Shown: one piece after another, positions 31,311 to 52,331 of the stretch
Layout: every line of letters begins with the position of its first letter
How positions within the stretch are numbered: the first letter of the stretch is position 1
Assembly (NCBI GenBank): GCA_012845835.1
Contig: JABAKD010000016.1
Location: 20,689,196-20,753,195 of the forward strand
DNA: 64,000 bases
DNA from: Undaria pinnatifida
Taxonomy: Eukaryota > Sar > Phaeophyceae > Laminariales > Alariaceae
Direction: 5' to 3'
Position numbers and translations under genes: made by a program
The notes under the pieces: generated by a model
Databases searched by the model: none
Seen by the model: the letters and a program-made list of their open reading frames with translations, nothing else
What the model was told of the DNA's origin: nothing

Positions 31311-34300
31311 ATGTGCGCCCCCGAGGATCATTCTCTGGGGAGCATTGAATCGCATCACAGGCAAGAAGAGGGAGCAACGCATGCAATATCGGACTGCGCG
31401 CCTGTCAAAAATGGAGGAGGGACACGACAGGCATGGGTCAAGGCCACCATTTGGCACCCTACTAGAAGCAGTTGCCGATTGCCTGTGGACGTTCTAATAG
31501 ACACAGGAGTAGGGGGAGGGAATTATGCGTCGGAGTCTTTCGTTCGCTCAGTAGAGCGAAACGCAAGGGGGGGGGGGGGGTATAATTAGCTCCAAGGGAA
31601 AAGGTTTGCTTAGGGCGGCGAATCCTATCCAGAGTGGAGTTCCCCCCACGAACATCGTTGGGTCGTGCGACATTCCGTTAGTGTTCATGCCGGAAGACCG
31701 AGTGAGAAGGATGACGGTCAGGGTGGTAGAGGGGCTACCATATGGGTTGATTCTAGGCGCTGCGTTCTTTAGGGAGCACGAGAGCGTACTCAATTTCGCG
31801 GAGGGAGGAGGCTTTAAGCCAGCTCCAGAATCGCCATGGGTACCGCTGAGATCGATGGCCCCCAACCACAAGATCGACAGTTAGTACTGGTCATACCAAC
31901 GCAACCATACGACATGGAGCTGGGAGCTGAGTTGGGGGTAGCCAGGGGTGTACAATGGTGGTACCCGGGCAACCCTCTACAATGCAAAGTCGTCAACCGA
32001 ACGAAAACCGCGATGACCATACAGCAAGGTGTTGTGGTAGCGAAGGTATTCGCAACCAACTCCAGTGATACAGAGAGAATGCGGTTGCTACTTGATCGGT
32101 CCGTAGAAAAAGAGCCCGTTCCAGCTGTCGAGGGAGAAAGAGGAGGAACGGAGAGGCCAACGGGTGACCTCGAGGAAGTTGCAGTTGACATAGCCGAAGC
32201 AAACATGGGGCAGTTAAGTCAGGGTTGCAAGTCAAACTTGTCAGAACTGTTGCGTGAATATTGTGATCGCGGACCGTTCCCGGCTAACCCCAAGGTAGTG
32301 CCAGCGTGCCACGGGGCTAAGCTACGGGTGCCCCTGACCAGGGATGATTGCACACCCTATGCGGCTAAGTAACGACGATATTCCCCAGAGGAGGAAGCCA
32401 TGATTCAGAGCGAGGTGACGAAACAGTTTCAAACCGAGGCCATCCGTAGATCAACATCAGCGTAGGCAGCCAATTGTGTCGTGGTTCGCAAGAAGGATGG
32501 ACCGGGGGCTGAATACGTTGCTAAAGTCGGAGAGTGGAGGCCTAGGAGATATCCAAAGCATCTTTGACGGCATGAAGGGTGCGAGCTGTTTTACGTCGAT
32601 AGATCTGGCTTCAGGGCTCACCCAACTAGAGATCGAAGAAGACGATAAGCACAAGACTGCATTCAGAGACGCCCACGGTACACTGTGGGAGCTTAACCGA
32701 TGCGGGTTTGGACTGAAGACTTTACCAGCAGGCTTTACAGCCTTCGTTGGCGGAGCTCTCGGTCCGTTGAAAGGGAAGGGAGTCCAAAACTGGTTGGATG
32801 ACATCATCACTTACACCCAACAGGTGGAAGGACATTTCGACCTATTGAGGCAAGTGCTAGAGAAACTATCGAGGGCCGGTCTGTCGGTGAACTTCTCTAA
32901 ATCATAGTGGTGCTGTCCTCAGCAAGAGTTTGTGGGTATGGTGGTGGACAGGCTAGGAGTGCGCCCTTCACAGTCTAAGATCGACGCCGTTGCTCAACTC
33001 ACTAGAGCCAACACGGTGGAGGAAGTGAGGGCACTGCTGGGTATGACAGGCTACCTGAGGAAGTTCGTCCCCCGATATAGCGCGCTGATAGCGCCAATCT
33101 CGAATCTTCTTCGTGACAAGCGTTTCGCGTCGAAACGAGCGAGGAAACTCAAGGTTCCATGGGGAGAGGAGCAAGACAAAGCGTTGGCGGCGCTAACCCT
33201 CTCTCTGACATCACCACCGATTTTGGCTATGCCAGACTGGAACAGGCCGTTCCAGCTCCACACGGATGCCAGCGAGTTAGGAGCAGGAGCAGTTCTTACC
33301 CAGACACATGAAGGTTCTGAACGTGTCTTGGGGTATGCTAGTCACCGGCGGTCTCGAACTGACGCTAGACGGTCACCTACGGAACGGTAAGTGATGGCGG
33401 TGTTACGGGCGGTAGACCACTTCAGACTGTACGTATGGGACAGGAGATTTACTCTCATTGGGAAGTTCTAGAAATGGACATCCAAGACCTCAAACGACAG
33501 TCTCAAGACGGAAACAGGTACCTGTTGGTTGTGGTGGATAGAGCCAGCAAGTTCCTGTTCGCATATCCGTTGCCGTCGAAGGGTGACTCGCAAGCTGTTA
33601 GAACTACTTTTGACCTTCGGGGTGCCGTTGTCGATCCGGAGCGATGCTGGGGGGGAGTTCACAGCGAAGGTGGTGAAACATTTGTGCCAGTGGTTGAGGG
33701 TGTCGATAGACTATGGTCCCGCCAACCACCCCCGTGCCCAGGGAGCAGTCGAAAGGGTGGGGGGGTGGCTCCAGGAGGTATTATCCGAACTCTGCAAGTC
33801 TTGGCCTAGGATATGGGATCGGTACTCCCAGCATGCTGGGTCCAGCGTGTTACCCCAGATCCTAGCCTACCCTCGTCGCCGACACCATTTCGTCTATTGT
33901 TCGGTCGGGATGCCCGCACACAGTTGGACTCGATAACCCCTGTCGTCGATGGTGTAGAACATCAAGGGGGATTGGACGCTTTCGTGGCGGATCAACAACA
34001 AGAGTTCAGAGAAGTACGCGAAGCCCTAGAGAAAAGGCAAGCTGCCAAGGATCGAAGTAGGCGAAGCTATAATGACGGCATAGGTCGTGCTTCGCCAGGG
34101 GGACAATCCAGGATCGGTGACTACGTGTTGGTTAAGGAGGCGGCCAGCACACTATCGAGGGAAGGGGTTCACTCGAAGTTAGCACACGAACACTGGACGG
34201 GACCATGGCAGGTAGTCCGTATAATACATCCAGGCCTTAGTTACGCGGTGCACATGAATGGCCGCAGTATCAGGAAGAGAATGGTGTCTGCGGCGGACAT

Positions 34301-34862
34301 CAAACCCTTTCATGAACGCCCGGTGAAACTTCGGCATGCTTTTGAGGACGAGTTTGCGCATTTGGCCTGGGGACCGGATGTTGGACTTGCTGAGGTTTCC
34401 ATTGCGGCAGCACCGCTGTACACGCTAATCGACCGTAAAGTTTTGTGGATCACAGGAGGCACGTGGGTCTGGGAATACAAGGGCAGGCACCTGGATGGCG
34501 TCGAATCTAACTGGCTGAACGAGGAAGAAGTACAAGAAAGCTTCACGCCACTACAACTGGACGTGCTTCACGCTTTGTGGGAGAGGTATTATGGAGCGGA
34601 TCACCGGACTCGACCACCAGGAGTGCCTACAAGGGGGGAAAGGGAAGCAGTTTCCAGGGAAGAGGCGTTAAAGGCATTCCCGATAGGAACTAAAGTCAGG
34701 AGGGAGTTTGCAGACATCCGTGGCCGGAGGAAGGTGTTCGTAGGGGAGGTGTACGATTTCAGCAACCCATACTGGCGAGTGAGATACCCAGACGGTGACT
34801 GGGAGGAGCCGAATCGGCACGAGGTCAATCAAGGGAAGGAGTTAGCGACAGCTTCATCTTAA
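31311..34862 (+). pseudogene. Element B pol, broken (protease to Tudor-like end)
   Basis: In order: retropepsin with DVLIDTG (31.49 kb), a frameshift at a 13-G run, the end of protease (GLILGAAFF), then an RT start interrupted by TAA (32370) and TAG (near 32462). The RT core follows (TSIDLASGLTQLEI, catalytic WLDD), then TAG (near 32905), the RT thumb and the start of RNase H (HTDASELGAGAV), then TAA (near 33388). The rest of RNase H, the connection and the integrase zinc finger are missing: sequence jumps at about 33450 to the integrase core (LEMDIQDL, IRSDAGGEF, GAVERVGG) with a further frameshift. The C-terminal 350 residues (33813-34862) are open and end in a Tudor-like module. Confidence 0.85.
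33813..34862 (+). CDS. Element B integrase C-terminal part with Tudor-like domain (open segment)
   Basis: This is the longest intact piece of element B. It has a YG-motif-like region (HEHWTGPWQVVRIIHPGLSY, the GPY/F type), a charged helical linker with RRSYNDG upstream, a WVWEYKGRHLDG segment, and a terminal module (GTKVRREF, VFVGEVYDF, YWRVRYPDGDWEE) that resembles Tudor/PWWP-like chromatin readers. It is not an independent gene. The apparent start lies inside the integrase reading frame. Confidence 0.65.
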   Translation: MGSVLPACWVQRVTPDPSLPSSPTPFRLLFGRDARTQLDSITPVVDGVEHQGGLDAFVADQQQEFREVREALEKRQAAKDRSRRSYNDGIGRASPGGQSRIGDYVLVKEAASTLSREGVHSKLAHEHWTGPWQVVRIIHPGLSYAVHMNGRSIRKRMVSAADIKPFHERPVKLRHAFEDEFAHLAWGPDVGLAEVSIAAAPLYTLIDRKVLWITGGTWVWEYKGRHLDGVESNWLNEEEVQESFTPLQLDVLHALWERYYGADHRTRPPGVPTRGEREAVSREEALKAFPIGTKVRREFADIRGRRKVFVGEVYDFSNPYWRVRYPDGDWEEPNRHEVNQGKELATASS

Positions 34863-36553: not shown

Positions 36554-37044
36554 TGTGAAGGAGTCGTGGTGCCGGATGTTGGGAGGGAAGGGACGCAGGG
36601 GTATCAGCTTCGCTTGGAGACAGCACCGGTTCTTCTTTGATGATTTCTTATTACTGGCGTTGAGCTATGAGAAGCTCGAAGGAGACAGGAAAGGGGAAGG
36701 AGTGAGAGCATGGGGGTGGGGTGAGGCTCACAGAGTTCGCTTCACCCTCCAGCATTGCTGCTGTGCTCTCTTCTGGACCTTTACCTATGGAACGTACAAG
36801 GAACGTTCTCCTAGGTGTGCTATATTCCCAAGAGCGCTTAACGCGCTTACTTCTACCTATCTTGTCCAGAGGAGGACGCTCCATTACCGAGAACGTTCTT
36901 GTGGTATAAGCTAGCTATTCTCTACGGGTTATCCGCTTCACTAAGAATATTCGGTTCTAAGGGAATCTTCTTGTGGCCAATAGACCGTTACTCTGCGGAC
37001 TATCTTACCGAATCTATTGCCCGCTATACCGACACTCTATTACA
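36554..37044 (-). repeat. Element A LTR (3' LTR in element orientation)
   Basis: 491 bp. No difference from 51841-52331 was found on reading. Confidence 0.93.
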
Positions 37045-38971
37045 TTAGCCCACCCTGAATAGTCGTATATGCAGACCTCAAGACGGTCGAAAGATGACGA
37101 CAACGTTCATCCTAAAAGACCGGGAAAGGAGGTCGAAGATGCGGCTATTCGAAACAAACACATGAGGCTATAGATTCCCCCACACCTCGTAAAGAGGCCT
37201 AAACTCCAAGGATAGGGCTATTCACTAATAAAGCAGATCGCTAAAAGGCAGGCCACAGGAAGAGAGGGAAACGGAAAACCAGAATGGAGCAACCTATGTA
37301 GAGTATTGAAAACTTAAAACCAAAAAGGAAACCCGAAGACAAAGGGAAGGCAGCTAAGAAAGGCAGAGATCAAAGCGAAAGTAAAGGGAAAACAGAAACA
37401 TATTACCGGAGCGATCTATGTAGGGCCCAGGGGGGAGCGAACGGAGAGTCGTACGCCGAACAGGGTCGGTTACTCGAAAGCTCGCAAAGGGGCATCACCC
37501 AAGTTCGAAAGTATATATGGCCGGGAGGCATTATGCGTAGCCGCGTGGCCAAAGCCCGAACAAAATGAAAAATAACACGTAAGACAAAACGAACGCTGCT
37601 AGGTTGCCGTAAGGCTTGCTAAAACTAAGGGGCTGCTAGGACCACTTGGTAGAACGAACAACGTGGCGACTTGGGAGGTCTGTTTGCGCTGGGAACAAAA
37701 CCGGCAAACGTAGCAAGGTAACTCAACCAACACGAACAGAACGTCAGGGTAGCCAAAGAGGTACGCAAGTGGATCGACCTAATTCGTTCGAACACAGAAA
37801 AAAAAAATGTCAGCAGCGCTGGGCGACGGAGTTAGCATGCCAAAACAGCGCCTACAGGGGGGGTCGACTGGCGCGTCATATAGCGTAGAATGGCAACGCA
37901 ACGTGTACACCTAGAAGAAAAAAAACAGGAACCAAAAGACTCATAAGCAAGGGAGAGCATAATTACCGCCGTGTTTGGGAAGTTCACGGGAACCTGAGCA
38001 CAGTTCGAGGGGATCAACCGTGGCAGGAATATGGTTACTGAGAAGTCGGCAGCCTTGTGGGGCGGCAAAAGCTACCGTGACCCAAACACGAAGAAAACAC
38101 GAGAATACAAAGAAAGAAAGGTTGGTTGGCGTTCCGGTGGTCTTGCAAGTCTGCAAGGCTGCCGGGGCCCTACTTGGCAAAGTGCGCAGAAAACCGATCA
38201 GGCCTAGAGCTCGGCGATGCCGTCAGGGCAAAGCGGCACCGGCGGCGGTCAGGATACAACACAAAGATCGAGCGCCTAGGGGCAAAGTCACCGAGTATCG
38301 GCGGAGGAATCGTGAAGTACAAACACAAGAAGAAAACGAGACGACCACGGTTCGAAAGCCTGGACGAAACGAGACTAGCGGAGACCGTAGTGGTAGAGAG
38401 AAAACAAAAGAAAAAAAATATATAAAATAGAGAGGGGGAGAAACACCTTAACACACCCTAGGTACGAGGCGGTTCTGGTTCGATAGCCATCACAGAGTGG
38501 GGCAAAGAAAGACCGGGTCGTCAGACGGGCGTACCTAAAACACTGCATACTGCAGAAAATTATGAATACTGCTCTACCACCACGAGTTGTCAGCCGTCAC
38601 GGAGTGGGACAGACGGAATCGATGGTGGTGAGAAAAAGAGGCAAACGCTGGTATGAAGAACAAACCAAAAGCGGAGGTATTGCGAGGGACACCTCAATGT
38701 TAAAACCAAATTCAAGCCTGATAACGGTTGTAGGCTAACCACGAGAAGACATGACGAAACAAAAACACTGTAGGTCGGAAGAATGACCACGATAATACCA
38801 CTAAAGTTACTGCAGGTTGAAGGCTGACTATGAAGAATCATTCCCAATGCTATCGTAGGGGAAAGGCCTAACCATGAGGTAGTACTATCGAAACTGTTGT
38901 AGAAGGCTGACCGTGAAGAACTAATCCCAAAACTACTGTAGAATAACCAAAAACAGATAAAACACCCGAAA
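37045..38971 (-). other. Element A 3' untranslated region
   Basis: It lies between the pol stop and the 3' LTR. It is purine-rich on the plus strand, with degenerate ~55-bp units at about 38690-38950 (GGTTGTAGGCTAACCACGA, GGCTGACYRTGAAGAA, CTACTGTAG). The 30 bp next to the LTR (TAGCCCACCCTGAATAGTCG and following) recur next to an LTR end at 54567, marking a related element there. No ORF with a recognisable domain. Confidence 0.6.
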
Positions 38972-41900
38972 CTAACCAATGGGGGGAGTTGGAACGGTAG
39001 GGGCACCGCGGGAAGCATCAGAATTCCGTAGCACCCCACGAGATAGGCTCCCATGCCCATGGCGTTGAAGGCACCACGATCCGGAGACGGCGTTCCGGGC
39101 GGTAGTGTAGCGAGCTGGCTGGAGGTCGATCTTGATCGGGCCGGGGTCGTCTAGGAACCTGATGATGTAGGAACTACCCGGGGAAGGGTCCGGGGGGGTT
39201 CGCGAAGAGGCGTCCGGTGGCGCGCGGTGAGCGATCTTGCCTAGCCACCAGAGGCCGTCACGTGCCTTGTACCAAACGCGTGCCCCGGAGGGGAGGGTGG
39301 AGTTTCTGAAATTGCGAAGCCAAAGGTCGCGGGGGACCAGGGTGTAGCCGGGGGCGAGGAAGAGTTGGCCTTGAGATCGGGAGAGCTCGCGGTGTGCGGC
39401 GCCGATGCGCATCTGGCGGTAGAGGCGGTTGGTCTGACGGTGTTGTGTCGGTCTTCCGGACCAGTAGAGTAAAATATGGCGCCTGAAGTGTTGGAGGTCG
39501 AGCTCGCGTTCCCACGAGGGGCTGAGGAGTCCGGTCCAGTGGGTCTCGTATAGGACGGCGATGACTCCGCCGCGGCCGCGTACGAGTTGGTGGCCGGTGA
39601 TTTGCTCAACCTCAAGACGCTCCGGTGGTGGTGTGACGTCGTCGAGGGTGACGTGGTAGGGGGGGGACTTGGCAGCGGAAGCTGTGAGGACATATGTTGT
39701 GAGGTCCGCTGGTAGGTGCTTGGGTATGTCGCTGGTGTCGTCGGGGTTGTGGCAGGGCTTGCACCGTTTGACGGAGACGCGTGGTTTGGAGTCCCGCCCC
39801 GGAAGGTCTGAAGGTAGATCGAGGAAAAGCAGCTTGTCTTGTAGCGGCCGGTTGTCGGGGGTGTCGGAGGCTGCAGTCGGGCCCACCGCGAGGATCTTGA
39901 AAGGCCCGTTCCAGTTCAACGAGAGTTTCGTCTTCAAAACGGTTGCGTCGGTGCCCTTCTTGGCACCCTGGCGGATAGTGGAGGCGGAGTTGTAGACCCA
40001 GGCCCAGCCGCCAACGGAGAAAGGGGGGGAGGCGAGGAGGGCGGCCATGATGGGCGCGTTGCGGCGTTGTAGACGCGAGACGGTAAGTCGGTGGAGCTCT
40101 CGGACGAGGGAGTAGGCGCGTTGTTGCCGGTCGGTGGCAAGGTTGATGTAGACTAGGTGGTCGCGATCCAGGCTCTGGTGACCGCCGATGTTTTCGGGTT
40201 CGAAGACCGAGAGCGGGAGGCGTGGTAGGCGGCCGATGTGGATCTCGTTGGGCGCCAGTCCGGTGGCGGCGTTGACAGAGTTGTTGTAGGCCGCCGACAC
40301 GTGAGGCAGTAGTACGTCCCAGTCGGTTTGCTTCTCGTTGCCAACCATGGGGAGCATCTGGGCCAGTACATGGTTGACCCGCTCGACGCCGCCGTTGGTG
40401 CAGGGGTGATAGGCGCTGGTGTTGACCTTGCGGATGCCAACGCGGTCGTAGACGATGGTTGCCAGCTTGGAGGTGAATTGTTGGCCATTGTCGGAGAGGA
40501 GCGTCACCGGGCACCCCCAGAGAGGAATGTACTCGTTGAGCAGGATGTCGGCAGTTCCGGCGGCCGTGAAGTTCTCTGCTGATACAGCGAACATGTCGGC
40601 CCGGCGGCTGAAGCGGTCGGTAAACAAAAGGATGTGCACGTTCCCGCGCGGTGTGAGAGGTAGGGGCCCGAAGTAGTCGACGCTGACGGTGATGCCAGGG
40701 CCGTTGGGTAAAGGAAGGGAGAGGGTCGGCCAGCGAATGGTGTGTCGGGAGGTCTTGCGCGCCTGGCAGTGAAGGCAGCGGCGGATCCACCAGCGGGCGG
40801 AGACGTCCATGCCGATCCACCAGTAAAACCGTGCCAGCATGCGAACCGTCCGGGTAACTCCAAGGTGTAGGGAGGTGTCGGCGTGGCATGTGTTCAGCAC
40901 CCAGGGGCGCATCAGCATTGGAACGTAGACGCGGGGGGGATAGGGTGCGGGTGGCGGGAGGCTGTTCCCGGGTTGAGATGTGGGTGGTCGTCGGACCAGG
41001 AGGGCTGTTTCGTCGTCAGTGCGGTGGAGTCTGCCTTTGGCGGCAAGTGCGAGGACGTCGGAGAGTAGTGGGCGCTGGGCAGAGGGGATGGAATCCAAGA
41101 GGTCAGCCGGCGGCGGAGAAGGGGAGTCCAACGATAGGAAGCGGATGGCGGCGTAGCACACGGGCTCTGCGCGTTGTTCGCGCGCCCAGTCTCTGTAGGT
41201 GTAGCGCTCAACGCGGGCGAGGAGGTGGGGGTCGATGTTGAGGTCGACAACAGGCTCCGGGAGCAGAAGTGGCGGTGTTGATGGGGACGTCGGAGAAGTC
41301 GTCGAAGGAGGGACCGGTCTTGGTGCGGTTGGTGCGGGTGACGCGGGCGGCGTGGGGACGGCAGCTGGAGGCGTTGTCGTCGGGGGAAGCCTTGGTTGGG
41401 CCCCGGCCGGGGGCGTGTGCGGTCGACGGGTAGATGTAGATCTTCTGGATACGGTTGGTTTCGGACGGCGTCCGAACCCATAGTCTGCGGTAGGTCGGGG
41501 GTTTCCCGCGGCGGCGGCGGCGCGATGGCGGGTCCGTGAAGAGATCAGACCAGAAGGCGGTGGTTCCGTGGCGCCAATGGTGGACAGCGGGGAGACGACG
41601 GGTGGCCTGGAAGCCGAACCAGGAGGAGCGCCGGTGTTCACGGCGGCATTCTCGGAGCTGACGAGCGGCCTGGCGGTGGAGTCGCGGGTCGAAATAGGCC
41701 CGACGAAGTTGTTGGGGATGCCGTGGTGCTCCATGCGTGGTCCCAGTAGGCGGAAGTCGGTATAGTCGTCGGCGGTGAAGGGAAGAGGCTGGATTGTTGG
41801 AATGGGTCTTGAAGGGGGGGACACGAGCCCACCCAAGCCGATACCCGGTGTAGGCGGCTCGTTCGGCGCGAAGCCGCAGGGGCGGATGAGGTAGATGCCA

Positions 41901-44900
41901 ACAGTGTCCGGGCCAGTGAGGCGGTTGCGTCCGGTGCGGTCGGCGTCGGTGGCTGGTTGTGGTAGGCGTGAAAGGAAGTCGGCGTTGCCGTTGGCCGTAC
42001 CTTTGCGGTACTTCAGTGTGTAGTTGTAAGCCGAAAGGAACTCGAGCCAGCGCCGGACGCGAGCGTTGTGCTCACCAACCTTGGCGATGTTTTCGAGCGC
42101 CTTGTGGTCCGAATAAATTTCGAAACGGGTGGACCACAGATGCCCGCGTAGTCGCTTGATCGCCCAAACGATGCTGCCGGCCTCGAGGTCGAGGGGTGTC
42201 CATGAACGTTCGGAGTCCAGAGTGGCGCGGCTGATGTAGATTATCGGGCGGACGGAGCCGTCAAGTTGTTCCTGCTCGAGAGTCGCTCCAAAGCCGTCGA
42301 TGCTAGCGTCGCAGTAGAGGCGGAAAGGGCGGGAGTCGTCGGCGACGGCGTCCCAGTCGGGGTAGACGAGGATCGGTGGCTCGGTAAGTTCGTGGAGGAT
42401 GGCGCGGATGGTGGCTTCCATGGCGGGGGTGAAGTCGAAGGTGGCGCCCTGCTTGAGTAGAGCGTTGATGGGGCGAAGGCGTCTGGAAAGGTTTGGTAGG
42501 AACTTGCCGTAGTAGTTGATACCTCCGAGGAGTGACCGCACCTGTTTCTTGTCGGTGGGCATGGGCATTTTGGTGAGAGCGGCGACCTTTTCGGAGTTGG
42601 GGCTGTAGCCGCCAGCGGAGATGGTGTGCCCCAGGAAGTCGGCGGTTGTGGCGCCAATTTTGGCTTTGGAGGGAGAAAGTTTGAGGCGGTGCTTACGGAG
42701 GCGACCAAAAAGGGCTCGGATGTTGGCGACGTGGTCGGTGGGGTCGGGGTCGAAGACGATGATGTCGTCGAGGTACGCGGCGACGCGTTCCAAGCCTTTG
42801 ATGACCTCGTTAATAACCTTAACGAACCAACCGGGGGAGGCACTGCTGCCTTGCGGCATTACAAGCCACTCGAAGAGCCGGTCTGGCGTGCAAAACGCCG
42901 TCAAAGGGATGGTATCCTTGTCGATGGTGATTTGGTGGAACGAGGAGACCAAGTCGAAGAGGGAGAAGATGCGCCCTTTTCCTAAAGAATCGAGGACCTC
43001 GTCAACGCGGGGGATGGGAAGCTGTCCGAGGGAGCTGATGGCGTTCAGCTTCTTATAGTTGATGGTGATGCGGACACCGCCGTCCTTCTTCGGGATGGCG
43101 ACCATGGGGCTGGAGTAAGGTGAGGTCGAATGCTGAATCAAGCCGGCGGCCACGTACTGGTCGAGGACGGCGTCGGCCTTTTTGGCAAGGATGGGGTTGA
43201 TCCTGTACGGGCGGGAGGTAACTGGTTCGCTGTCCGGAGGTACGGTGATCTTGAACGGCATCAATGAGCACGAGCCGAAGTCGGTCTTGGAGGTGGAGAA
43301 GACGTCCGGAAACTCGCAGAGGACATCTCCCAGGCTGTCGATCACCGATGGGGACCATCCGGAACCGTGGAGGTCGAAGATGATGTCGCGCAGATGCGGC
43401 GGCAGACGGTCCCAGAGGTTGAGGAAGCTAGTTCGTTGATCGGTGTCGAGGCGTGCGAGGAGCTGTGGGCACGGGGCTGTCGATGGGTCGTGGGGATTGG
43501 CTGGTGGGGGGTTCTCGCTGGCCACAGGGATGTTGTCGTGTAGGGCATGTACGCCTGGCGTAGGTGGAGGGGCTGGGGGGTCCAAAGAAGGGTGCCCAAG
43601 GGTGGCTAGTGGTACTTGCACCAGCGGGGAGAGGGAGGTTCCGAGGAGGTCGCCCGGTTCGAGATCGGTTGATCCTGACAATGGGATAGTCTGGTGTCCG
43701 TCGGAGACGAAAATTTCCTTGTCGGTGAGAAGGTCCTCGCGGGGGAGCATGTTGACCATGTACTGCCCGGTAAACGCCGGGGCGCCTGACTGGCGCACGA
43801 GGTTGACCTTGATGAGCTTCGGCGAGGAGGAAAGCGAAATAACTTTCGTGCCGGCGAACCGGAGGTGGTAGACGTCGTCGGTGTATCGGTCGTCGGGAAT
43901 GAAGGCGGAGGCCCTGTTGGTGTCGTGGTGGTGCAGGGAAAGTTCGCCCAGGGTCGGTTGGGGGGGCTGGTGTGGCAGCTGGGGCTGTCGCGGGAGCGTG
44001 GTATACGAGCGTCGCTCGAAGCGCATCCAGCTATCTCGCCCCAAGAGGATGGGATGCTGCATAGTTCCTGCAGGAACGACGCAAGCCCATACTGCCAGGG
44101 CGGCGGTGGGGGTTTGGTGGTGCTTAAACTGGATGCTTAAGCGGATAGAAACGGAGGTGGAGAGGGGAGTCGAGGTTCCGAAACCTCCCCATGAACGAGG
44201 TGAGTTCTGTCGCTCACACTCATCCGTTGCTGACCGGGACGCCTTCAGTTGTTCCACGGCGGCGGTGGTGATGAACGACTGGGGGGAGCCTGTGTCGAGC
44301 AGCGCCACGAGTTTGCAGCGTTTGGCGGCGGTAGGGCCGCTGTGGACTAATACTTCGGTCGTGAACGACGCGTCGTCGACAGTTAGGATGCCGCTTGTAA
44401 GGCACGGTCCATGTTCTGGTATCGTCGGCGCGGTAGTAGCGGGGTATAGGTTGGTTGCGCCGTCGACGGCGGAGACCTGAGCGAAGTGGCTGCTGGGCAA
44501 GGCGTCCGGGGTGGAGGGTGGCAGAAGGAGTCCAAGCTGGGTACTCGGCGTTTGTCGAAGGGGCGGGGGGCTTGTCTCGTGGATGCTATCTGCGGTGGGG
44601 AAGACCCGGCTGGCGTCGGTGGTGGTGGGTGTTGGCTCAGCGGAGCAGGGGGCGAGGGCGCTTGTGGCGTGGAGGCTTGAGCGAAGGCGTTCGCGGACGT
44701 CCATAAGTACCCGGCCTAGCAGGTTCCGACCGCGCCAGCGCGCCCTTTCGCAGGCAAACGGGTGGTCGGCCCTATAGCCGATGCCCCAGACGAGGTCGTA
44801 CGGGCTGGCCTCAGCGATGTGCTTCTCGCCAGTTGCCTCGAGCGCTTGTTGTAGGTCCGGGTTTTGGCTGAACTTGCAGAAGTTGGTGTTGAGGACGATG

Positions 44901-46003
44901 TCGTAGCGGTGTCGCTCCCAACACTCCTGGTCGAAGCCGGACACGGTGCGTCCAAGAGATTTTTGGTTGGCGGGATCGGGGGTGGTTCGGATGAGGAGCT
45001 CTGTCGCGGTGTCACCGAAGAGCGCAGCCTTCTGCGCCATCATCATCTGTTCGGCGCAGTTGTACGTGACGCTTTCGTACTCGATGTCGCACAGGTACCA
45101 CTGTGAGAAGACGGACGAGGAGTTCCAGAAGAAATGGAAAGAATCCGGGGTGTCCGCGGTGTCATGTGCTGGCGAGGGCGAGTCGTCGGAAGGGTGTTGC
45201 AGGGGTGGGTGTCGGCGATCGTTGGTAAAGTCGCCGTGTGGCGTTGTCGGGGGTAGAGTCAGGTCCGATCGGGCGGCGCTGACTTGAACGCCCGAGTTCG
45301 CGGGGGAATTGCTCGGCAAAGCCGAGGTACCGGGAGGGTCCACGCGGTGGCGCGCACGCTGGGCGGGGATACCCTGAAAGGTCCTGTCTTCAGGCGTTTG
45401 GAGAGCAGGGCTGTACTCGCTAGGGCATGCAGATCCTGTGGCCCGAGTCCACGCAATACGTGAAGCCGGCGAGGATGACGGGGCAGGGTGCTCAGAGCAT
45501 GTCCTGGTCAACTGTGATCGCGAGTCTTCCATCTGTACGACGGGGCTGTCCCTCGAGCTCAGGGACAGTGGTGCTGTCAACACCGTGGCAGCGAGTGGGA
45601 AACCGTCATTCGCGGGCCCAACGTTGCCACTAAAAGGGCGCACGTCCTGTGACGAGCGGGTGAGCGGTGGCCAATCTGGGGTCGAGGCGGGCTCAGGGGG
45701 CGATGGCCCGGTAGACGAAACAGCCGTTTCGTGTGAACCGGAACCGCTGGTAGTCGTAATCGTCGAGACTTCGCCCAGGTTAGCAATGTCTGGAATCTCA
45801 GCGATAGTCGGCAGGTAGCGTTGCACATCGCGGGAAGGCGTCGAGTGGAGCATCCCAGTAGGGCTCGACGTCTTGGCCTCCTCCCGCCCACACCTCAAGG
45901 CAATCACTGGAACAAGAGGATCAGTGCTTGAACAAGTGGTTGGGGTTCGGGCTGGGGTAGGGGGGGGGCGTAGGGGGACAGGGGGCAGGGGGTCGTGACG
46001 CAC
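38972..46003 (-). CDS. Element A Pol: NADAR-protease-RT-RNase H-integrase-chromodomain-Tudor-like
   Basis: 2343 codons counted from a GTG at 46003. The frame is open up to the gag UGA at 46090-46088 and the first ATG is only near codon 51, so Pol is probably made by UGA readthrough. Domains (residues): NADAR/YbiA-like 289-441 (YNCAEQMMMAQKA, GRTVSGFD, EASPYDLVWGIG, NLLGRVLM); retropepsin LLDTGS at 568-573; RT about 935-1130 with YLDD at 1077-1080; RNase H 1226-1347 (D1232, E1274, D1299, D1342); integrase HHCC (H1707, H1713, C1743, C1746) and DD35E (D1776, D1838, E1874); GPF motif near 2034; chromodomain 2130-2181; Tudor-like 2238-2300. Unlike other Ty3/gypsy Pols, the protease is preceded by about 560 residues, including NADAR. 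Confidence 0.92.
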   Translation of the reverse strand: MRHDPLPPVPLRPPPTPARTPTTCSSTDPLVPVIALRCGREEAKTSSPTGMLHSTPSRDVQRYLPTIAEIPDIANLGEVSTITTTSGSGSHETAVSSTGPSPPEPASTPDWPPLTRSSQDVRPFSGNVGPANDGFPLAATVLTAPLSLSSRDSPVVQMEDSRSQLTRTCSEHPAPSSSPASRIAWTRATGSACPSEYSPALQTPEDRTFQGIPAQRARHRVDPPGTSALPSNSPANSGVQVSAARSDLTLPPTTPHGDFTNDRRHPPLQHPSDDSPSPAHDTADTPDSFHFFWNSSSVFSQWYLCDIEYESVTYNCAEQMMMAQKAALFGDTATELLIRTTPDPANQKSLGRTVSGFDQECWERHRYDIVLNTNFCKFSQNPDLQQALEATGEKHIAEASPYDLVWGIGYRADHPFACERARWRGRNLLGRVLMDVRERLRSSLHATSALAPCSAEPTPTTTDASRVFPTADSIHETSPPPLRQTPSTQLGLLLPPSTPDALPSSHFAQVSAVDGATNLYPATTAPTIPEHGPCLTSGILTVDDASFTTEVLVHSGPTAAKRCKLVALLDTGSPQSFITTAAVEQLKASRSATDECERQNSPRSWGGFGTSTPLSTSVSIRLSIQFKHHQTPTAALAVWACVVPAGTMQHPILLGRDSWMRFERRSYTTLPRQPQLPHQPPQPTLGELSLHHHDTNRASAFIPDDRYTDDVYHLRFAGTKVISLSSSPKLIKVNLVRQSGAPAFTGQYMVNMLPREDLLTDKEIFVSDGHQTIPLSGSTDLEPGDLLGTSLSPLVQVPLATLGHPSLDPPAPPPTPGVHALHDNIPVASENPPPANPHDPSTAPCPQLLARLDTDQRTSFLNLWDRLPPHLRDIIFDLHGSGWSPSVIDSLGDVLCEFPDVFSTSKTDFGSCSLMPFKITVPPDSEPVTSRPYRINPILAKKADAVLDQYVAAGLIQHSTSPYSSPMVAIPKKDGGVRITINYKKLNAISSLGQLPIPRVDEVLDSLGKGRIFSLFDLVSSFHQITIDKDTIPLTAFCTPDRLFEWLVMPQGSSASPGWFVKVINEVIKGLERVAAYLDDIIVFDPDPTDHVANIRALFGRLRKHRLKLSPSKAKIGATTADFLGHTISAGGYSPNSEKVAALTKMPMPTDKKQVRSLLGGINYYGKFLPNLSRRLRPINALLKQGATFDFTPAMEATIRAILHELTEPPILVYPDWDAVADDSRPFRLYCDASIDGFGATLEQEQLDGSVRPIIYISRATLDSERSWTPLDLEAGSIVWAIKRLRGHLWSTRFEIYSDHKALENIAKVGEHNARVRRWLEFLSAYNYTLKYRKGTANGNADFLSRLPQPATDADRTGRNRLTGPDTVGIYLIRPCGFAPNEPPTPGIGLGGLVSPPSRPIPTIQPLPFTADDYTDFRLLGPRMEHHGIPNNFVGPISTRDSTARPLVSSENAAVNTGAPPGSASRPPVVSPLSTIGATEPPPSGLISSRTRHRAAAAAGNPRPTADYGFGRRPKPTVSRRSTSTRRPHTPPAGAQPRLPPTTTPPAAVPTPPASPAPTAPRPVPPSTTSPTSPSTPPLLLPEPVVDLNIDPHLLARVERYTYRDWAREQRAEPVCYAAIRFLSLDSPSPPPADLLDSIPSAQRPLLSDVLALAAKGRLHRTDDETALLVRRPPTSQPGNSLPPPAPYPPRVYVPMLMRPWVLNTCHADTSLHLGVTRTVRMLARFYWWIGMDVSARWWIRRCLHCQARKTSRHTIRWPTLSLPLPNGPGITVSVDYFGPLPLTPRGNVHILLFTDRFSRRADMFAVSAENFTAAGTADILLNEYIPLWGCPVTLLSDNGQQFTSKLATIVYDRVGIRKVNTSAYHPCTNGGVERVNHVLAQMLPMVGNEKQTDWDVLLPHVSAAYNNSVNAATGLAPNEIHIGRLPRLPLSVFEPENIGGHQSLDRDHLVYINLATDRQQRAYSLVRELHRLTVSRLQRRNAPIMAALLASPPFSVGGWAWVYNSASTIRQGAKKGTDATVLKTKLSLNWNGPFKILAVGPTAASDTPDNRPLQDKLLFLDLPSDLPGRDSKPRVSVKRCKPCHNPDDTSDIPKHLPADLTTYVLTASAAKSPPYHVTLDDVTPPPERLEVEQITGHQLVRGRGGVIAVLYETHWTGLLSPSWERELDLQHFRRHILLYWSGRPTQHRQTNRLYRQMRIGAAHRELSRSQGQLFLAPGYTLVPRDLWLRNFRNSTLPSGARVWYKARDGLWWLGKIAHRAPPDASSRTPPDPSPGSSYIIRFLDDPGPIKIDLQPARYTTARNAVSGSWCLQRHGHGSLSRGVLRNSDASRGAPTVPTPPIG
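44681..45139 (-). other. NADAR (DUF1768/YbiA-like) domain inside retrotransposon Pol
   Basis: The domain shows in order an N-terminal FFW...FSQWYLCDI strand, a Y..AEQMMMAQKA helix, FGD, an I..T.DP..QK.LGR segment, W...R..I, a KF.QNP.L helix, and EASPYDLVWGIG followed by W.G.NLLG..LM.VR. These are the signature blocks of the NADAR superfamily, known to bind or cleave NAD/ADP-ribose derivatives; members in bacteria remove ADP-ribose from guanine. No obvious core block is missing. Its role in an LTR element is unknown. Confidence 0.85.
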
Positions 46004-46049
46004 GTGGTGTACTCGGGCGTCCTGAGACCCGGTCTTCGCAGCAAGTGCT

Positions 46050-46090
46050 GTTGGCGGAGATGCTGCAGTTGCTCCACCACCGGCTCTTCA
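46050..46090 (-). promoter_or_regulatory. Candidate gag-pol UGA readthrough signal with downstream hairpin
   Basis: The gag UGA (46090-46088) is in frame with pol. Six nt after it (AGAGCC), the RNA can form a stem GGUGGUGGAG (46081-46072) with CUCCGCCAAC (46059-46050): nine of ten positions pair, including one G-U, around a 12-nt loop. A stem a few nt after the stop is the layout of known retroviral stop-codon readthrough signals. Function is inferred. Confidence 0.55.
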
Positions 46091-48835
46091 GTTGGTGCGA
46101 AAGGTGCCCGGTTGTCGTTGATTGGGGTTGGTCGCGTTATTATTGCCGATCCGCATGTTCGGCGGGGCGGCGGCTGGGGGGACATAGGTCGCCGGGTCGT
46201 GTACCGTCATGGCTGTTGACTGCGATGCGGTGACGGCGCGACGATGTTGAAATTGCTGCCCTTGCGACTGTCGGTTGCCGTTGTCGTGGGAGCGGCTGTT
46301 GTCGTGCGAGCGGCCGTTGTCGTGGGAGCGGCCGTTGTTGTGGCGTCTGTTGTTGGAGCGTCCGTTGTTGCCCCGGTGTTGGTTGGAGTGGTCGTGGTTG
46401 TAGCGGTTGTTGTTGTTGTTGGCGCCCCGGTTGTTGTTGTGGTAAGTGCCCCCACGGTTGTCGTTACGGTGGGCGTAGCGGTTGGAGTTCCGGTCGACGT
46501 TGTGCTCGTACTGGCCCCGGCGGTAAGAACGCATCCGTTGTTGCCATTGGCGGTAGGCGTGGCCGCCATCGTTGAGCTGGCCAAGTGCAGGGTTGAGGAT
46601 GCCGGATATGTTGATGAAGTCCTGGGGGCAGGTCTTCATGCTGTGATCCGTACCGTTGCAGTTAAGGCAATGTCCACCGTGAGCGCGTAGGGCTTGAGCA
46701 CGGGCCGAGCTCGTGAGGAGCGGAGTCAGCAGCGGGGGATCCTGCGTACTAAACGTTGTCGTCACCATGTACACCTCCTCGTAGTGGCGGAGAGGCCAGT
46801 CGGACTCGTCCTCGCAGAATGGGTCACGGTCGGCGTCGGCTACGTTCATGATTAGTGGGTTTGACGCGGAACCCATCGCACGAGTGCCGGGGCCACGCGT
46901 GTTGGTGTGTTGCGCAGGAGGTGGCGGTGAAGAGGAGTACGTAATATGCCCGCCGGAAGAGGTCGCATGAAATCCTTGGCCGTTTATAGCTGGCGTCTTG
47001 TTCGTTGCCAGTACCTCGAAGGCCGACCACATGTCCGCAACCGTGGCGAACGGCTGCGAGGTCGTCATGAGGCGCCCAGGGTAAAGAGTTGGCATCAGCG
47101 ACGGGTACTGACTGCTGGTAACTCCGCGTACGATTTCGACGACCATAGCGTCACTGGGCTTGAAAATTTTCTCCGTGCCCTGTGCGAGCGAGACACGCTC
47201 TTTGAACGCTCGCAGGAACGTGGAAAAGTCGGTTGAGCTCGGTACGCCGAAGGAGTGCAGCTGTTGGAAGGCGCGCCCCTGGTCGCCGTCGTCGAAGTGG
47301 TTGGTTAGGAGCTGCAGCAGCTTCCTAAAAGCCGACGGTCCGGTTCCGTCGATGCCTAGTTCCTGGACAACTTGGACGAAGAAATCGTCGATGAGGCGGG
47401 TGAGGGGAGATGCCATGACCTGCGGATACCCGAGAGCCTTTCGGAAGCATTTGTGGAGGGTTCTGTGCCATCCCTTGACCCACGGGGGGGTGTCGAATGA
47501 TTGCTTACCGGACTCGTCGCAGATTGTGAGAATCTCCCTCATCGCCAGTTTGACGCTGGCGAGGAACATGCCCAGGTAGACGGCGGCGTCGCTGTTGGCC
47601 GGGAAGGGTAGGCGTACGAGTGGTGTCAACTTCCGCATGTCCACTACGTCGTACTGGCGCGTAACGGCATGATGTTCGTCGTCCGTCATAGGTCCCGATC
47701 GGGATGGCGTTGTCCTGGTGGGCGGGGTTGGGACCGTCGCCGGCGTGGGCGCGTCCGTGGTGGGCTGGGCCGGTGTCGTAGCAGTGGGCGCGGCCGTCGT
47801 AGGGGGGGGGGTGGGGCGTGCAGGGGCGTCGGGACGGTACTCTGTCTGGTTCCACACGTAGCCGCGGCCGGCGTTGTTGTGGAAGTGACGAAGGGCGAGT
47901 ACCAGGGTGTTGGTGGCCCTGATGAGCTCGTCGGATGCGCTAATTGTGGCGGCACGGGCCTGGACGAACGCGACTGATGGGTCGCTATCGGGGGCAAATA
48001 AACCCCACAGGCGGTGTGCCGCCGATGAGACATCAGAAAAAGCTGCTCCGCGTGTTCTCTGCATGCAGCGGAGGGTGGCGTCGCAGAAATCCCAATCAAT
48101 AGCCTCGCGCGGCAGAACCGTCGGTCGTGAGGATGCCAAGGGGGTGGGGGAGGGCAAGGGCTGGGCAGGAGGTGGCACCTGGTAGGTTGTGGTAACCGGC
48201 TGGGCCGGCGGTGGCAGCTGGAAAGTAGTGGCTCCAAGCGTCTCGGCGGGCGCATGGGTTGGCGCTACCCGCAGCGGCTGTGCCCGCAAGGACACAGGCA
48301 CTGAAGGTTGCGTGGGGGAGGGGAGCGGCTGCGGTTGGAACGGAGTGGCCGCGGTCGCACCTGTAGCCGTATATGACGGCGAGAATGGGTTCGTGGAAAG
48401 GGTTGGGGATGGGGGAAGCCTGAGCAAGAGCTCCGCGCTCTCCTTTAGTTGGAGAACCAGCTGTTCGTGATGAGCTTGCAGGGCTGCGCGGCGCTCGCGA
48501 AAAACCGCGCGGTGGCCCTGGGTGTTCCCCGGGTCCGAGATTGGGCTTGCAGAGTCCTGCGAAGTGGTCTCAGGCTTTACAGTGGGCTCCCGCCCGGCAC
48601 CGGAGGTGCCTACTCTCGGGGGAGGGGGGCCCGGCGTGGCCGTATGGGGCGTCAAATCGCCCAGAATGGATTCCACGTTCGGGATGTCGTCCATGTTTGC
48701 GCGGGCGGTCCTGGCGGTGTACCGCTCCTCGCGGGAGCTGGGGGAATCAGGGGTGTGGGCCCCAGCCATGTTGGTGTCGGAAGCGTATCTCTCAGCCATG
48801 TCGATGTCGAGGAAAGGTGGGGGGGACGCTTGCAC
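46088..48835 (-). CDS. gag: Element A Gag polyprotein
   Basis: 915 residues from ATG to UGA. The N-terminal third is Pro/Thr/Ala-rich and probably disordered. A central helical region (about residues 390-600, with WVKGWHRTLHKCFRKALG and FRKLLQLLTNHFDDGDQG) resembles the capsid-like domain of Ty3/gypsy Gags. A zinc knuckle CLNCNGTDHSMKTC (C-x2-C-x4-H-x4-C) follows. The C-terminal part is Asn/Arg/His-rich with several NGRSHD repeats, a basic low-complexity stretch likely to bind RNA. It is in the same frame as pol, separated by a single stop. The frame is uninterrupted, in line with identical LTRs. Confidence 0.88.
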   Translation of the reverse strand: MQASPPPFLDIDMAERYASDTNMAGAHTPDSPSSREERYTARTARANMDDIPNVESILGDLTPHTATPGPPPPRVGTSGAGREPTVKPETTSQDSASPISDPGNTQGHRAVFRERRAALQAHHEQLVLQLKESAELLLRLPPSPTLSTNPFSPSYTATGATAATPFQPQPLPSPTQPSVPVSLRAQPLRVAPTHAPAETLGATTFQLPPPAQPVTTTYQVPPPAQPLPSPTPLASSRPTVLPREAIDWDFCDATLRCMQRTRGAAFSDVSSAAHRLWGLFAPDSDPSVAFVQARAATISASDELIRATNTLVLALRHFHNNAGRGYVWNQTEYRPDAPARPTPPPTTAAPTATTPAQPTTDAPTPATVPTPPTRTTPSRSGPMTDDEHHAVTRQYDVVDMRKLTPLVRLPFPANSDAAVYLGMFLASVKLAMREILTICDESGKQSFDTPPWVKGWHRTLHKCFRKALGYPQVMASPLTRLIDDFFVQVVQELGIDGTGPSAFRKLLQLLTNHFDDGDQGRAFQQLHSFGVPSSTDFSTFLRAFKERVSLAQGTEKIFKPSDAMVVEIVRGVTSSQYPSLMPTLYPGRLMTTSQPFATVADMWSAFEVLATNKTPAINGQGFHATSSGGHITYSSSPPPPAQHTNTRGPGTRAMGSASNPLIMNVADADRDPFCEDESDWPLRHYEEVYMVTTTFSTQDPPLLTPLLTSSARAQALRAHGGHCLNCNGTDHSMKTCPQDFINISGILNPALGQLNDGGHAYRQWQQRMRSYRRGQYEHNVDRNSNRYAHRNDNRGGTYHNNNRGANNNNNRYNHDHSNQHRGNNGRSNNRRHNNGRSHDNGRSHDNSRSHDNGNRQSQGQQFQHRRAVTASQSTAMTVHDPATYVPPAAAPPNMRIGNNNATNPNQRQPGTFRTN

Positions 48836-51800
48836 TGGAGTAGAGATTGATGGGGTGGAAGTGTAGAGGAAGGTTGGATCCAGGCTTGGATCTCGGGGCG
48901 GCAGCTACAATCACCAACAAACCGATCTAGAGGGAGAAAAAAAAAAACAGCAAAATACAAAATGGAAGTAAGGGCGTACGGTAGGGGGGGGGATGTGCCA
49001 CGATTTTAGTGCTCGTCCAAGGGTATATGTTTATGTGGTTTGGAGAGTATCTGACCAGAAACCAGACGTCTCGTTTTTGTCAGACGACAGTCCTCACGTC
49101 AATTGAGCGATACCTATGAGACTGAATTGGGCAGAGCTCCGTCTGAACTGCAGAATTCCTCTGTTATGGTATCAGGGCGTGACAATTGTGGGACGTTGGC
49201 AGTGCAAAACCGATCGCGCGGGTACGTTTGATCAGTACCTAAAAAGAGCGAAGGGTGAAAAAAATTTGCAGCATGCCGGCACCATTTGGTAGGCACACAA
49301 AATACCGGGCGATCGAAAGGCGGGGTGTTCGTCGTTACGTGACAAAAAAAAAATGGGCAGCATGCCGGCCGTTTCGGGGGGGGTTCGCGTAGTCCGGTAC
49401 GTCGTGGCGTAACGCAAGGTATCGTAAAGGCAGCTTAAATGAAATCAGACCCCGGTACGTGAAACAAAGAAAAGCATACCGATCAGCCACCATGGGGAAG
49501 AAGCTCGGGTACGCTAGTCTGTTGCGACTATAGTTATAATTTGTCCAGCATACAGTTTTCAGTTTTAGGACATTTTCTGCACGGGCGGCATCGAACATGT
49601 TCTAAATTTGAGCAGCATGCAGCTGCTGTTGGTGATATGCCGGACAAACAAGGGAAGAAAATAATAAATGAAAGACAAAGAAAAGAAATAAAACAGTTGT
49701 TGACTTTCAAGCTTGCGCAGCAACGTTACAACTTTGAGCAGCATAGACCCTGCTTCATCGTAAAACTGAGGCGGAAAAAGCGTTGAAGTAGCAACAGGGG
49801 GGGGGAATTTGGGCATCATCTACCCTGTATCACCAAAACGGGGAAAAGTAAACTTGAGGGTGACAGAATTTGGGCAAATCTGAGCAGCATCTACTCCACT
49901 TCATCATGGAGATGGAACAGATGCGAGGGAACTTAAATGCATTTTGCTTTTTCGAGAGAAGAAAGAAAAAAAAATTGCAGCGTAGAGCCTGCTATGGGGT
50001 AAAAAGCTGGCCAAACGCGGGGGGGGGAAACAATCCAACATTAGACGGCGTAGGGCTCGGGCACTACAAATAAACTGACAAAATGCTCTTACAGCAGAAT
50101 AGAGAAGCATATGGGCATGATAGAGCCCATATGTGGCTCAAAACTGGTAAGAGGCACGGTTACTGCAGCATTTCCGATGTTGTGAGCAGCATAGGGGGGC
50201 CGTGCGTGAGACAACACCGACGGAATGCACATATATTACACTAGCATCCTGACAAATTAAGGCAGCATAAAGCCTGTGTATGACAGAAGGCTGGCGAGAT
50301 ACACGTACTACATCAGTTTTTTGTCAAATTTGAGCAGCGTAGATGCGATACATGACCAAAATATACGAAGTGTACGCTAAACAACAGCATAGAGACAAAT
50401 GGCAACATAGAGTCCTGTATGTCTAAAGCTGGAAGAATTGCGCACCAGACAACGGTAATTTGGCCATAGCAGTGCAGGGCCCGTGTATGTCGTCCGTATA
50501 ACTGGAGGGGTATACGTACGACACCAGCGTTTTGATACATTCGAGCAGCAAAGCGGTCGAACAAAAACAAAAACGAAAGTTTGCACAGAAACAGTAGCAA
50601 TTCCCTAAGACAAGTTTGAGCAGCGCAGAGCTACTCGTACGTGCTCGTTAGCCAAGCGAAAGGCAAGCAAGCAAAATAGCTATTCTTAATAATGCAAACA
50701 AGGGAAATGCATCAAACAAAAAAAAACAAATAAACAAACGAGGGACAAACCAAAACGACTTGAGACGGCGGTGGAAACGGGGTACTACTGGGAGTATCAG
50801 GACAAGACGCAACTCGTGCATATAGATAGGCCTGAAACCCTGGGAGTCAGATGCGGTACAAAACAAGACCTGGTGGGGAGGTGGGTCTGCTACATGGCTA
50901 TGAGAGTGTGTCACGCCCGTAAGGTGCGTGTCAACCCATGCTTGTGTACGTACCACTGCTGCTGTGTACGAGGTACGCAAAATGTCTATGAGCCGCTGTC
51001 TCACAAAAGATACGCAAGAAAAAGTGACGAAAGCGGCGTATCCGTTACCCATCACACGTCGAATAAATAAATGCTGGCTCAAACAGCACCTGGTACCAGC
51101 TAAATGTGCGGGGAGAAAACGAAAGAGAAAAAACAAGAATTCCGAAGTGGACAGGGTACCTCCCTGGCACCTTGTGTCTGTCTCCTGTAAATGAGGGCCT
51201 ATCCCTCAATCAGAGCAGAACACAATAGAGAGCTCTCCTTTTGTTACGTGGTCCTTGTGGGGTTACAGGGGTTGGGTCGTTCTTGTACATACAAGTGCGT
51301 TTTGGGGATGGAATAACGCTTTTGGGGTGACGGACGTACTACACAGGAGTACGGTGACACGAAAGCGTTCAGGAGACATCCCGTACCGTACGTAGGACTT
51401 GTACGTACTGATAATAATGCACTACACGTTTGGTGTGAAAGCAAAGGGAACAAAGGGGGTCGTTTGTAGCACAATACCGGTGCTATACCTACCTACGAGG
51501 GGGGGGAAGTACGAGAGAGAAGAGACGACTGACTACAGCACTCAACTGCGTGTACTCGATTCTATACTATATGACCCACCTATGAGCTGTCAGCGGAGCT
51601 CGTATAGTACGTGGTTGGTACACGGAGGTTCGATAGAAAAAGGAAGGCAAAAGAAAAGACAAAGAACACAAAACAGAACAAAACAAGAAAGAAAGAAAAA
51701 AAAAATGACTCCTCCTATCTATCCTGTCTCTTGCCATATATGTGGTGGCTCACATTTTTAGGATAACGAGAAACCGAGAAGAGGCGGGGCTGCCGTTCCA

Positions 51801-51840
51801 AGCTTGAAGCTCACACGTCGTCCTGCCGACGACGCCAGAT
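48836..51840 (-). other. Element A leader with primer-binding site and degenerate repeats
   Basis: Minus strand from 51840: ATC, then TGGCGTCGTCGGCAG as the likely primer-binding site. Between about 49550 and 50640 (plus-strand reading) a motif TTTGAGCAGCATAGAGCCTG recurs at least eight times in degenerate form, at roughly 70-130 bp intervals, often followed by TATGAC/GTAAAAAGCTGG-like sequence. No ORF with a domain. A 3-kb leader is long for an LTR element and may hold packaging or internal initiation signals. Confidence 0.6.
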
Positions 51841-52331
51841 TGTGAAGGAGTCGTGGTGCCGGATGTTGGGAGGGAAGGGACGCAGGGGTATCAGCTTCGC
51901 TTGGAGACAGCACCGGTTCTTCTTTGATGATTTCTTATTACTGGCGTTGAGCTATGAGAAGCTCGAAGGAGACAGGAAAGGGGAAGGAGTGAGAGCATGG
52001 GGGTGGGGTGAGGCTCACAGAGTTCGCTTCACCCTCCAGCATTGCTGCTGTGCTCTCTTCTGGACCTTTACCTATGGAACGTACAAGGAACGTTCTCCTA
52101 GGTGTGCTATATTCCCAAGAGCGCTTAACGCGCTTACTTCTACCTATCTTGTCCAGAGGAGGACGCTCCATTACCGAGAACGTTCTTGTGGTATAAGCTA
52201 GCTATTCTCTACGGGTTATCCGCTTCACTAAGAATATTCGGTTCTAAGGGAATCTTCTTGTGGCCAATAGACCGTTACTCTGCGGACTATCTTACCGAAT
52301 CTATTGCCCGCTATACCGACACTCTATTACA
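51841..52331 (-). repeat. Element A LTR (5' LTR in element orientation)
   Basis: 491 bp, TGTGAAGG...CTATTACA on the plus strand, followed by the target duplication ATAC. Confidence 0.93.

What the first reader, a model, noticed from the sequence alone, without database searches (positions are those of the whole stretch)
44681..45139. NADAR/YbiA-like domain built into a Ty3/gypsy Pol
The open Pol frame of element A contains, between Gag and the protease, a domain with all visible signature blocks of the NADAR (DUF1768) superfamily. NADAR proteins act on NAD/ADP-ribose derivatives, and bacterial members reverse ADP-ribosylation of guanine. In an LTR element such an enzyme could protect element nucleic acid from host ADP-ribosylation, salvage nucleotides during reverse transcription, or act in particle maturation. 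The domain is in frame, its blocks are intact, and the LTRs are identical, so it is part of a live element and not a stray insertion.
Basis: partly seen in the sequence, partly recalled or inferred. Interest (0 to 1): 0.88.

Follow-up and report, generated by a model that had tools for sequence, protein, structure and literature searches.

The report
Seaweed retrotransposon carrying a NADAR enzyme
A recently moved jumping gene in what is probably a brown-alga genome carries, inside its polymerase protein, a complete enzyme domain of the kind that removes ADP-ribose from guanine; the same arrangement was published in 2025 for the brown alga Ectocarpus, so this is a new example of a known thing whose purpose is still unknown.

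The parts
36554..52331 (-). Complete Ty3/gypsy element (family A), flanked by ATAC on both sides
   Evidence: identical 491-bp LTRs and 4-bp flanking repeat; Pol domains
51841..52331 (-). 5' LTR of the element
   Evidence: exact 491-bp repeat
36554..37044 (-). 3' LTR of the element
   Evidence: exact 491-bp repeat
51822..51837 (-). Putative primer-binding site TGGCGTCGTCGGCAGG, three bases inside the 5' LTR
   Evidence: read from sequence; TGG start recalled as typical; no tRNA was matched
46088..48904 (-). Gag frame with one CCHC knuckle (CLNCNGTDHSMKTC)
   Evidence: open frame and motif read from sequence; no Pfam family; Gag of family B is 41-44% identical over the part matched
46088..46090 (-). 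In-frame UGA between Gag and Pol, probably read through
   Evidence: UGA in 28 of 28 family-A loci that aligned there, of 30 tried, the window copy among them; same junction with similar in-frame residues after it in family B
45140..46087 (-). N-terminal Pol linker, poorly conserved
   Evidence: no match in the family-B loci tested; pN/pS about 1
44681..45139 (-). NADAR domain, YbiA subfamily
43808..44332 (-). Aspartic protease region with LLDTG motif
   Evidence: motif in sequence; PF13650 E=0.0066 and PF12384 E=0.01, both below cut-off
42620..43096 (-). Reverse transcriptase
   Evidence: PF00078 E=1.6e-27
42026..42340 (-). RNase H
   Evidence: PF17917 E=2.3e-27
40751..40924 (-). Integrase zinc-binding domain
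   Evidence: PF17921 E=5.4e-14
40403..40702 (-). Integrase core
   Evidence: PF00665 E=3.3e-7, slightly below its cut-off
39470..39613 (-). Possible chromodomain at the C-terminus of Pol
   Evidence: PF00385 E=0.1, below cut-off; published Ectocarpus relative has a putative one

Best explanation
It is a Ty3/gypsy LTR retrotransposon of a lineage in which an ancestor captured a YbiA-subfamily NADAR gene, now fixed between Gag and protease. Shown: the domain, its place, its active-site residues, its presence in several families of one genome, constraint on it among close copies, and a conserved in-frame UGA before Pol. Inferred: occasional UGA readthrough makes Gag-NADAR-Pol, so the enzyme is packaged in step with reverse transcriptase; inside or near the particle it hydrolyses ADP-ribose from guanine in the element's RNA or new cDNA, a lesion that would block copying or integration. 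The placing resembles the dUTPase that betaretroviruses carry next to protease (recalled). Who adds the ADP-ribose (a host defence, or stray host or microbial transferases) is unknown.
For: Domain and order; fold equal to ADP-ribose-bound NADAR; all nine positions named in PMC11543638 for ligand contact, catalysis or rescue are present (mapped by hand). NADARs remove ADP-ribose from guanosine in RNA and were the only hydrolase family found able to (PMC11833690, abstract and passages). Families A and B keep NADAR at 48% identity while the N linker no longer aligns; differences at codon positions 1/2/3 are 66/50/92, p=7e-4. Close copies: pN/pS 0.38 in B (p=0.008, RT 0.44) and 0.49-0.54 in A (p about 0.045), N linkers 0.90 and 1.05-1.09. 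UGA and in-frame sequence after it conserved.
Against: No activity, expression or readthrough data. In A the constraint is borderline and is lost (0.86, p=0.24) when copies down to 95% identity are included; in older A copies NADAR is 0.73, like the linker. All B copies used were stop-free rows. One ligand residue (R78) is lysine in 13 of the 18 loci L031-L048. No substrate is known in brown algae, and YbiA was slower on modified RNA than a DarT1-linked NADAR. Copies were found through NADAR, so losses were not surveyed.
Confidence: 0.45

Rival explanations
1. The NADAR acts outside the particle, on host targets: released by the protease, it reverses ADP-ribosylation of host RNA or DNA, or acts on NAD-, riboflavin- or other glycoside metabolites, keeping the cell permissive or blunting a stress response.
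For: TIGR02464, the riboflavin-intermediate N-glycosidase model, matches at E=1.1e-43. NADARs have several suggested cellular roles (PMC11125620 introduction). An Ectocarpus stress-induced protein with this domain is known (PMC7922944 passages).
Against: The domain is encoded only downstream of the UGA, in step with RT, so little of it would be made and it would be expected inside particles (inference). No sign of a targeting signal was looked for.
Confidence: 0.2
2. The domain has become a binding or structural module, for example an ADP-ribose- or RNA-binding part used in assembly, without need of catalysis.
For: R78 is lysine in most family-B loci; overall identity between families is only 48%.
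Against: The catalytic E30, K37 and E110 are present in 15 of 15 close A loci, and in 17 of 18 each of L031-L048.
Confidence: 0.12
3. A passenger: a domain captured by chance and carried along without use.
For: In older family-A copies NADAR decays like the rest (pN/pS 0.73 against 0.74 in the N linker), though dead copies are expected to.
Against: Constraint among close copies of B as strong as on RT; retention over a divergence in which the linkers lost almost all similarity.
Confidence: 0.05

Closest known systems
Gypsy-12_Ec32 lineage of Ectocarpus (PMC12477816, Genome Biology 2025; section 5 part 1 and passages seen)
   Same: Gypsy Pol with a YbiA-family NADAR at its N-terminal region and a putative C-terminal chromodomain; several families share it; role unknown.
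   Different: Another host genome, probably Undaria. Sequences of Gypsy-12 were not available, so kinship was not measured. The text searched does not mention readthrough or a stop codon; here the UGA junction and selection are described.
NADAR of Phytophthora nicotianae (PDB 8BAU) and E. coli YbiA (2B3W)
   Different: Those are not parts of a retroelement polyprotein as deposited; sequence identity 33% and 28%.
NADAR in nidovirus replicase polyproteins (gill-associated virus, yellow head virus, Wenling nido-like virus 1)
   Same: A NADAR fold inside a replication polyprotein of an RNA-based element (Foldseek E 8e-5 to 3e-4).
   Different: RNA viruses, not reverse-transcribing; about 21-23% identity.
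Candida albicans Tca2 (PMC2194720, start of abstract in a search listing)
   Same: Gag and Pol separated by one UGA.
   Different: No NADAR that I know of (recalled); the listing mentions a 3' pseudoknot, which was not tested here.

Membership tests
NADAR superfamily, YbiA subfamily | Significant match to the family profile over its whole length | tested here: met
   PF08719, profile positions 1-163 of 163, E=1.9e-48
NADAR superfamily, YbiA subfamily | YbiA fold | tested here: met
NADAR superfamily, YbiA subfamily | Glutamate in the last strand (E125 of P. nicotianae NADAR), which marks the YbiA subfamily | tested here: met
   E110 of the domain aligns with it; definition in PMC11125620
NADAR superfamily, YbiA subfamily | Conserved E43 and K50 needed for activity | tested here: met
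   E30 and K37
NADAR superfamily, YbiA subfamily | Guanosine-ADP-ribose hydrolase activity | not testable with these tools
   needs an assay
Ty3/gypsy LTR retrotransposon | Pol order RT, RNase H, integrase | tested here: met
   Pfam positions 998-1156, 1250-1354, 1722-1895
Ty3/gypsy LTR retrotransposon | LTRs with TG...CA ends and a short target duplication | tested here: met
   491-bp identical LTRs, ATAC on both sides
Ty3/gypsy LTR retrotransposon | Aspartic protease upstream of RT | tested here: inconclusive
   LLDTG motif in the right place; Ty3 peptidase profile E=0.01, below cut-off
[quoted passage not shown]
   residues 319-469 of 2371, before protease
NADAR-bearing Gypsy lineage of brown algae (Gypsy-12_Ec32 kind) | C-terminal chromodomain after integrase | tested here: inconclusive
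   PF00385 E=0.1, below cut-off
NADAR-bearing Gypsy lineage of brown algae (Gypsy-12_Ec32 kind) | RT phylogeny placing it with the Ectocarpus lineage | not tested
   Ectocarpus sequences and supplements were not available (supplement look-ups capped at 0)
NADAR-bearing Gypsy lineage of brown algae (Gypsy-12_Ec32 kind) | Brown-alga host | tested here: inconclusive
   genome of 511.1 Mb against 511.3 Mb for Undaria pinnatifida M23 (PMC12116465 table); size only
UGA-readthrough retroelement | Single in-frame stop between Gag and Pol, conserved, with coding-like conservation directly after it | tested here: met
UGA-readthrough retroelement | Measured readthrough | not testable with these tools
   needs a reporter assay

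The most novel reading that the evidence does not exclude
Brown algae use, or are exposed to, guanine ADP-ribosylation of nucleic acids as a barrier to retroelements, and this Gypsy lineage carries its own eraser, packaged through Gag-UGA-NADAR-Pol readthrough. It would be a eukaryotic mobile element with a built-in counter to nucleic-acid ADP-ribosylation, parallel to NADAR antitoxins and phage NADARs in bacteria.
Probability: 0.25. Interest if true: 0.85.

Novelty: new member of a known kind. Interest (0 to 1): 0.45.

Why it matters
The capture of NADAR by brown-algal Gypsy elements was described in 2025 for one species, with its role left open. This case shows the domain with its full active-site residue set in several element families of a second, larger genome, and constraint on it among recent copies. 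That points to use and not decoration. If true, it offers a natural eukaryotic setting in which to ask whether ADP-ribosylation of RNA or cDNA on guanine exists and matters, an open question in that field.

Tried and rejected
Rejected: a stray insertion or a chance open frame (the domain sits in the same order in families whose NADARs are 48% identical). Disfavoured: a frameshift at the Gag-Pol junction. An overlapping +1 frame (45904-46206) resembles the start of relative P0009, but family B keeps similar residues in the Gag frame right after the UGA; P0009's own family may differ. Rejected: novelty of the architecture, after PMC12477816. Literature searches: NADAR+retrotransposon (104 papers, 25 listed), NADAR+guanosine+ADP-ribosylation (20 papers, 15 listed), NADAR+Gypsy (2), YbiA+retrotransposon (1), NADAR+transposable elements (11, 10 listed), DUF1768+reverse transcriptase (2), Undaria genome (3), UGA readthrough+gag+pol (12, 10 listed).

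Led nowhere: scan of viral contigs with the domain (no relative). A search with the whole Pol limited to the NADAR region gave one protein of 296 candidates, P0002, which I take from its sequence for a helicase with NADAR of a large DNA virus. Single origin of the element NADARs is unresolved in the 183-row tree; in a 55-row subset of my choosing groups A, B and C form one clade at 85/80, not strong. The donor was not resolved. Whether copies without NADAR exist, and whether the host has an ordinary NADAR gene, did not complete. No scan of genome contigs was made.

Dropped rows and biases in the selection counts: one search used 16 of 50 loci then held. Family-B counts used 33 loci, all taken from rows without stops in the domain; B-type rows with stops were listed but not fetched. 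Family-A loci L002-L015 were the best scorers by NADAR itself, which favours few amino-acid changes; therefore chose copies by identity outside NADAR (A: 0.54, p=0.046 at 97% or more; 0.86, p=0.24 at 95% or more; B: 0.38, p=0.008 at 98.5% or more; 0.50, p=0.007 at 97% or more). The p-values are one-sided, assume a transition weight of 2 and are not corrected for the number of segments.

Full report
What is there. On the minus strand, 36554-52331 is a complete LTR retrotransposon: identical 491-bp LTRs with TG...CA ends and ATAC on both sides, a Gag frame 46088-48904 with one CCHC knuckle read from the sequence, and a Pol frame 38972-46087 of 2371 aa. In Pol, Pfam finds NADAR (residues 319-469, E=1.9e-48), RT, RNase H and integrase. 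The protease is seen by its LLDTG motif and by profiles below their cut-offs; a weak chromodomain match lies near the C-terminus (E=0.1).

Copies and families. The window lies in a genome of 511,146,479 bp in 68 contigs. By size this fits Undaria pinnatifida M23, 511.3 Mb in a table of PMC12116465 (passages); no other test of the species was made. The domain gave 152 matches, 150 of 1461 candidates being scored, so this is a lower bound. Fifteen rows are 97-100% identical with no stop inside; five of them, the window copy included, have the same 2371-aa frame. A second family, B, has NADAR 48% identical to the window's; nine listed rows have an open frame of 2473 aa. In the 13 B-type loci L031-L039, L041, L042, L047 and L048, NADAR is followed by PR (48-52% in the main stretch) and RT (73-81%), while the N linker gives no match; L047 has part of the stretch between PR and RT inverted. 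A third group, C (L043-L046), has NADAR 49-54% identical; the four copies are decayed and two of them (L044, L045) still show RT downstream. Proteins from other public contigs repeat the pattern. Ten (P0003-P0010, P0012, P0014) are 73-92% identical, several with recognisable flanks such as P0003, P0004, P0005, P0007 and P0008. Of ten longer ones fetched, four (P0125, P0127, P0135, P0147) have NADAR followed by the protease motif LLDTGSPQSFI and one (P0130) has it changed; P0126 and P0131 end before it; P0123, P0124 and P0134 look like other proteins.

Selection. Between window and B (L031) NADAR differs at codon positions 1/2/3 by 66/50/92, one-sided p=7e-4; pN is 0.38 with pS saturated. Counting each distinct change once against one reference, NADAR pN/pS in B is 0.38 (24 copies, 14 S and 16 N, p=0.008), RT 0.44 (p=0.03), both linkers 0.90, PR 0.83 and the stretch after PR 0.79 (not significant). 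In A (L002-L015) NADAR is 0.49 (12 S, 18 N, p=0.043), N linker 1.09, C linker 0.51, PR 0.40, after PR 0.35. Those A copies were ranked by NADAR itself, so chose copies by identity outside NADAR: A 0.54 (15 copies, p=0.046) at 97% or more, but 0.86 (22 copies, p=0.24) at 95% or more; B 0.38 (24 copies, p=0.008) at 98.5% or more and 0.50 (28 copies, p=0.007) at 97% or more. In A copies L016-L030 all five segments are at 0.63-0.74 (another site weighting), as expected of dead copies. So constraint is firm in B and between families, and borderline in A. Active-site tallies (K60 not tallied): all eight are unchanged in 15 of 15 close A loci; in L031-L048, R78 is lysine in 13 of 18, W118 is changed in 2, and E30, K37, W74 and E110 in one each, while R64 and D115 are unchanged.

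How Pol is made. Gag and Pol share one frame, split by a single UGA. It is UGA in all 28 family-A loci that aligned there, of 30; eight, the window copy included, are identical over 181-183 nt. In family B (L051, L052) Gag also ends RQPGTFRTGN-UGA and Pol resumes in frame (A: RAGGGATAASPPTALAAKTGSQDARV; B: QGDGGTAHPTRTPTALSGTLPLISQDARV); the Gag frame of L051 is interrupted further upstream, that of L052 is longer. Similar residues directly after the stop, in the same frame, favour readthrough over frameshifting. A UGA also separates gag and pol in Candida Tca2 (PMC2194720, search listing). If so, NADAR is made only within Gag-NADAR-Pol. This is inference.

Mechanism. NADARs remove ADP-ribose from guanosine in DNA (PMC11543638, PMC11125620) and in RNA, where they were the only hydrolase family found able to do so (PMC11833690, abstract and passages). 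The simplest role is protection or repair of element RNA or cDNA, like the dUTPase that some retroviruses carry next to protease (recalled). Action on host molecules, or binding alone, are the live rivals. Foldseek also matches nidovirus replicase polyproteins.

Prior art. [quoted passage not shown] it suggests processing of RNA intermediates. The present element is a new member of that published kind. Added here: a second host genome, selection counts, active-site mapping, sharing among families in that genome, and the conserved UGA. Element NADARs form one clade with moderate support in a 55-row subset (85/80) and are unresolved in the 183-row tree.

Verdict. Observation confirmed; interpretation partly supported; striking biology with a published architecture; function open.

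Noticed in passing
31818-34862 (+): Broken Gypsy element in the window (RT, RNase H in separate frames) whose last frame ends in a Tudor-like match (PF21743, E=9.4e-6, just below its cut-off). It resembles the Tudor-bearing Gypsy-10_Ec32 described in PMC12477816.
   Followed up: partly
29184-31039 (-): A second broken Gypsy Pol (RT, RNase H, integrase in two frames), about 30% identical to the element's RT in the stretch matched.
   Followed up: no
58902-61823 (-): A 973-aa open frame with a CCHC knuckle and a weak Pol_BBD match, both below cut-off; looks like a Copia-type Gag-protease.
   Followed up: no
45904-46206 (-): Overlapping +1 frame across the Gag-Pol junction contains VVEQLQHLRQQH, similar to the start of relative P0009 (MVEQPPHLRQQH), which there is in frame with NADAR; the junction may differ among families.
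   Followed up: partly
37045-38971 and 48905-51840: About 1.9 kb after Pol and 2.9 kb before the Gag frame hold no frame longer than about 190 aa, so a third of the element looks non-coding.
   Followed up: no
   Followed up: no
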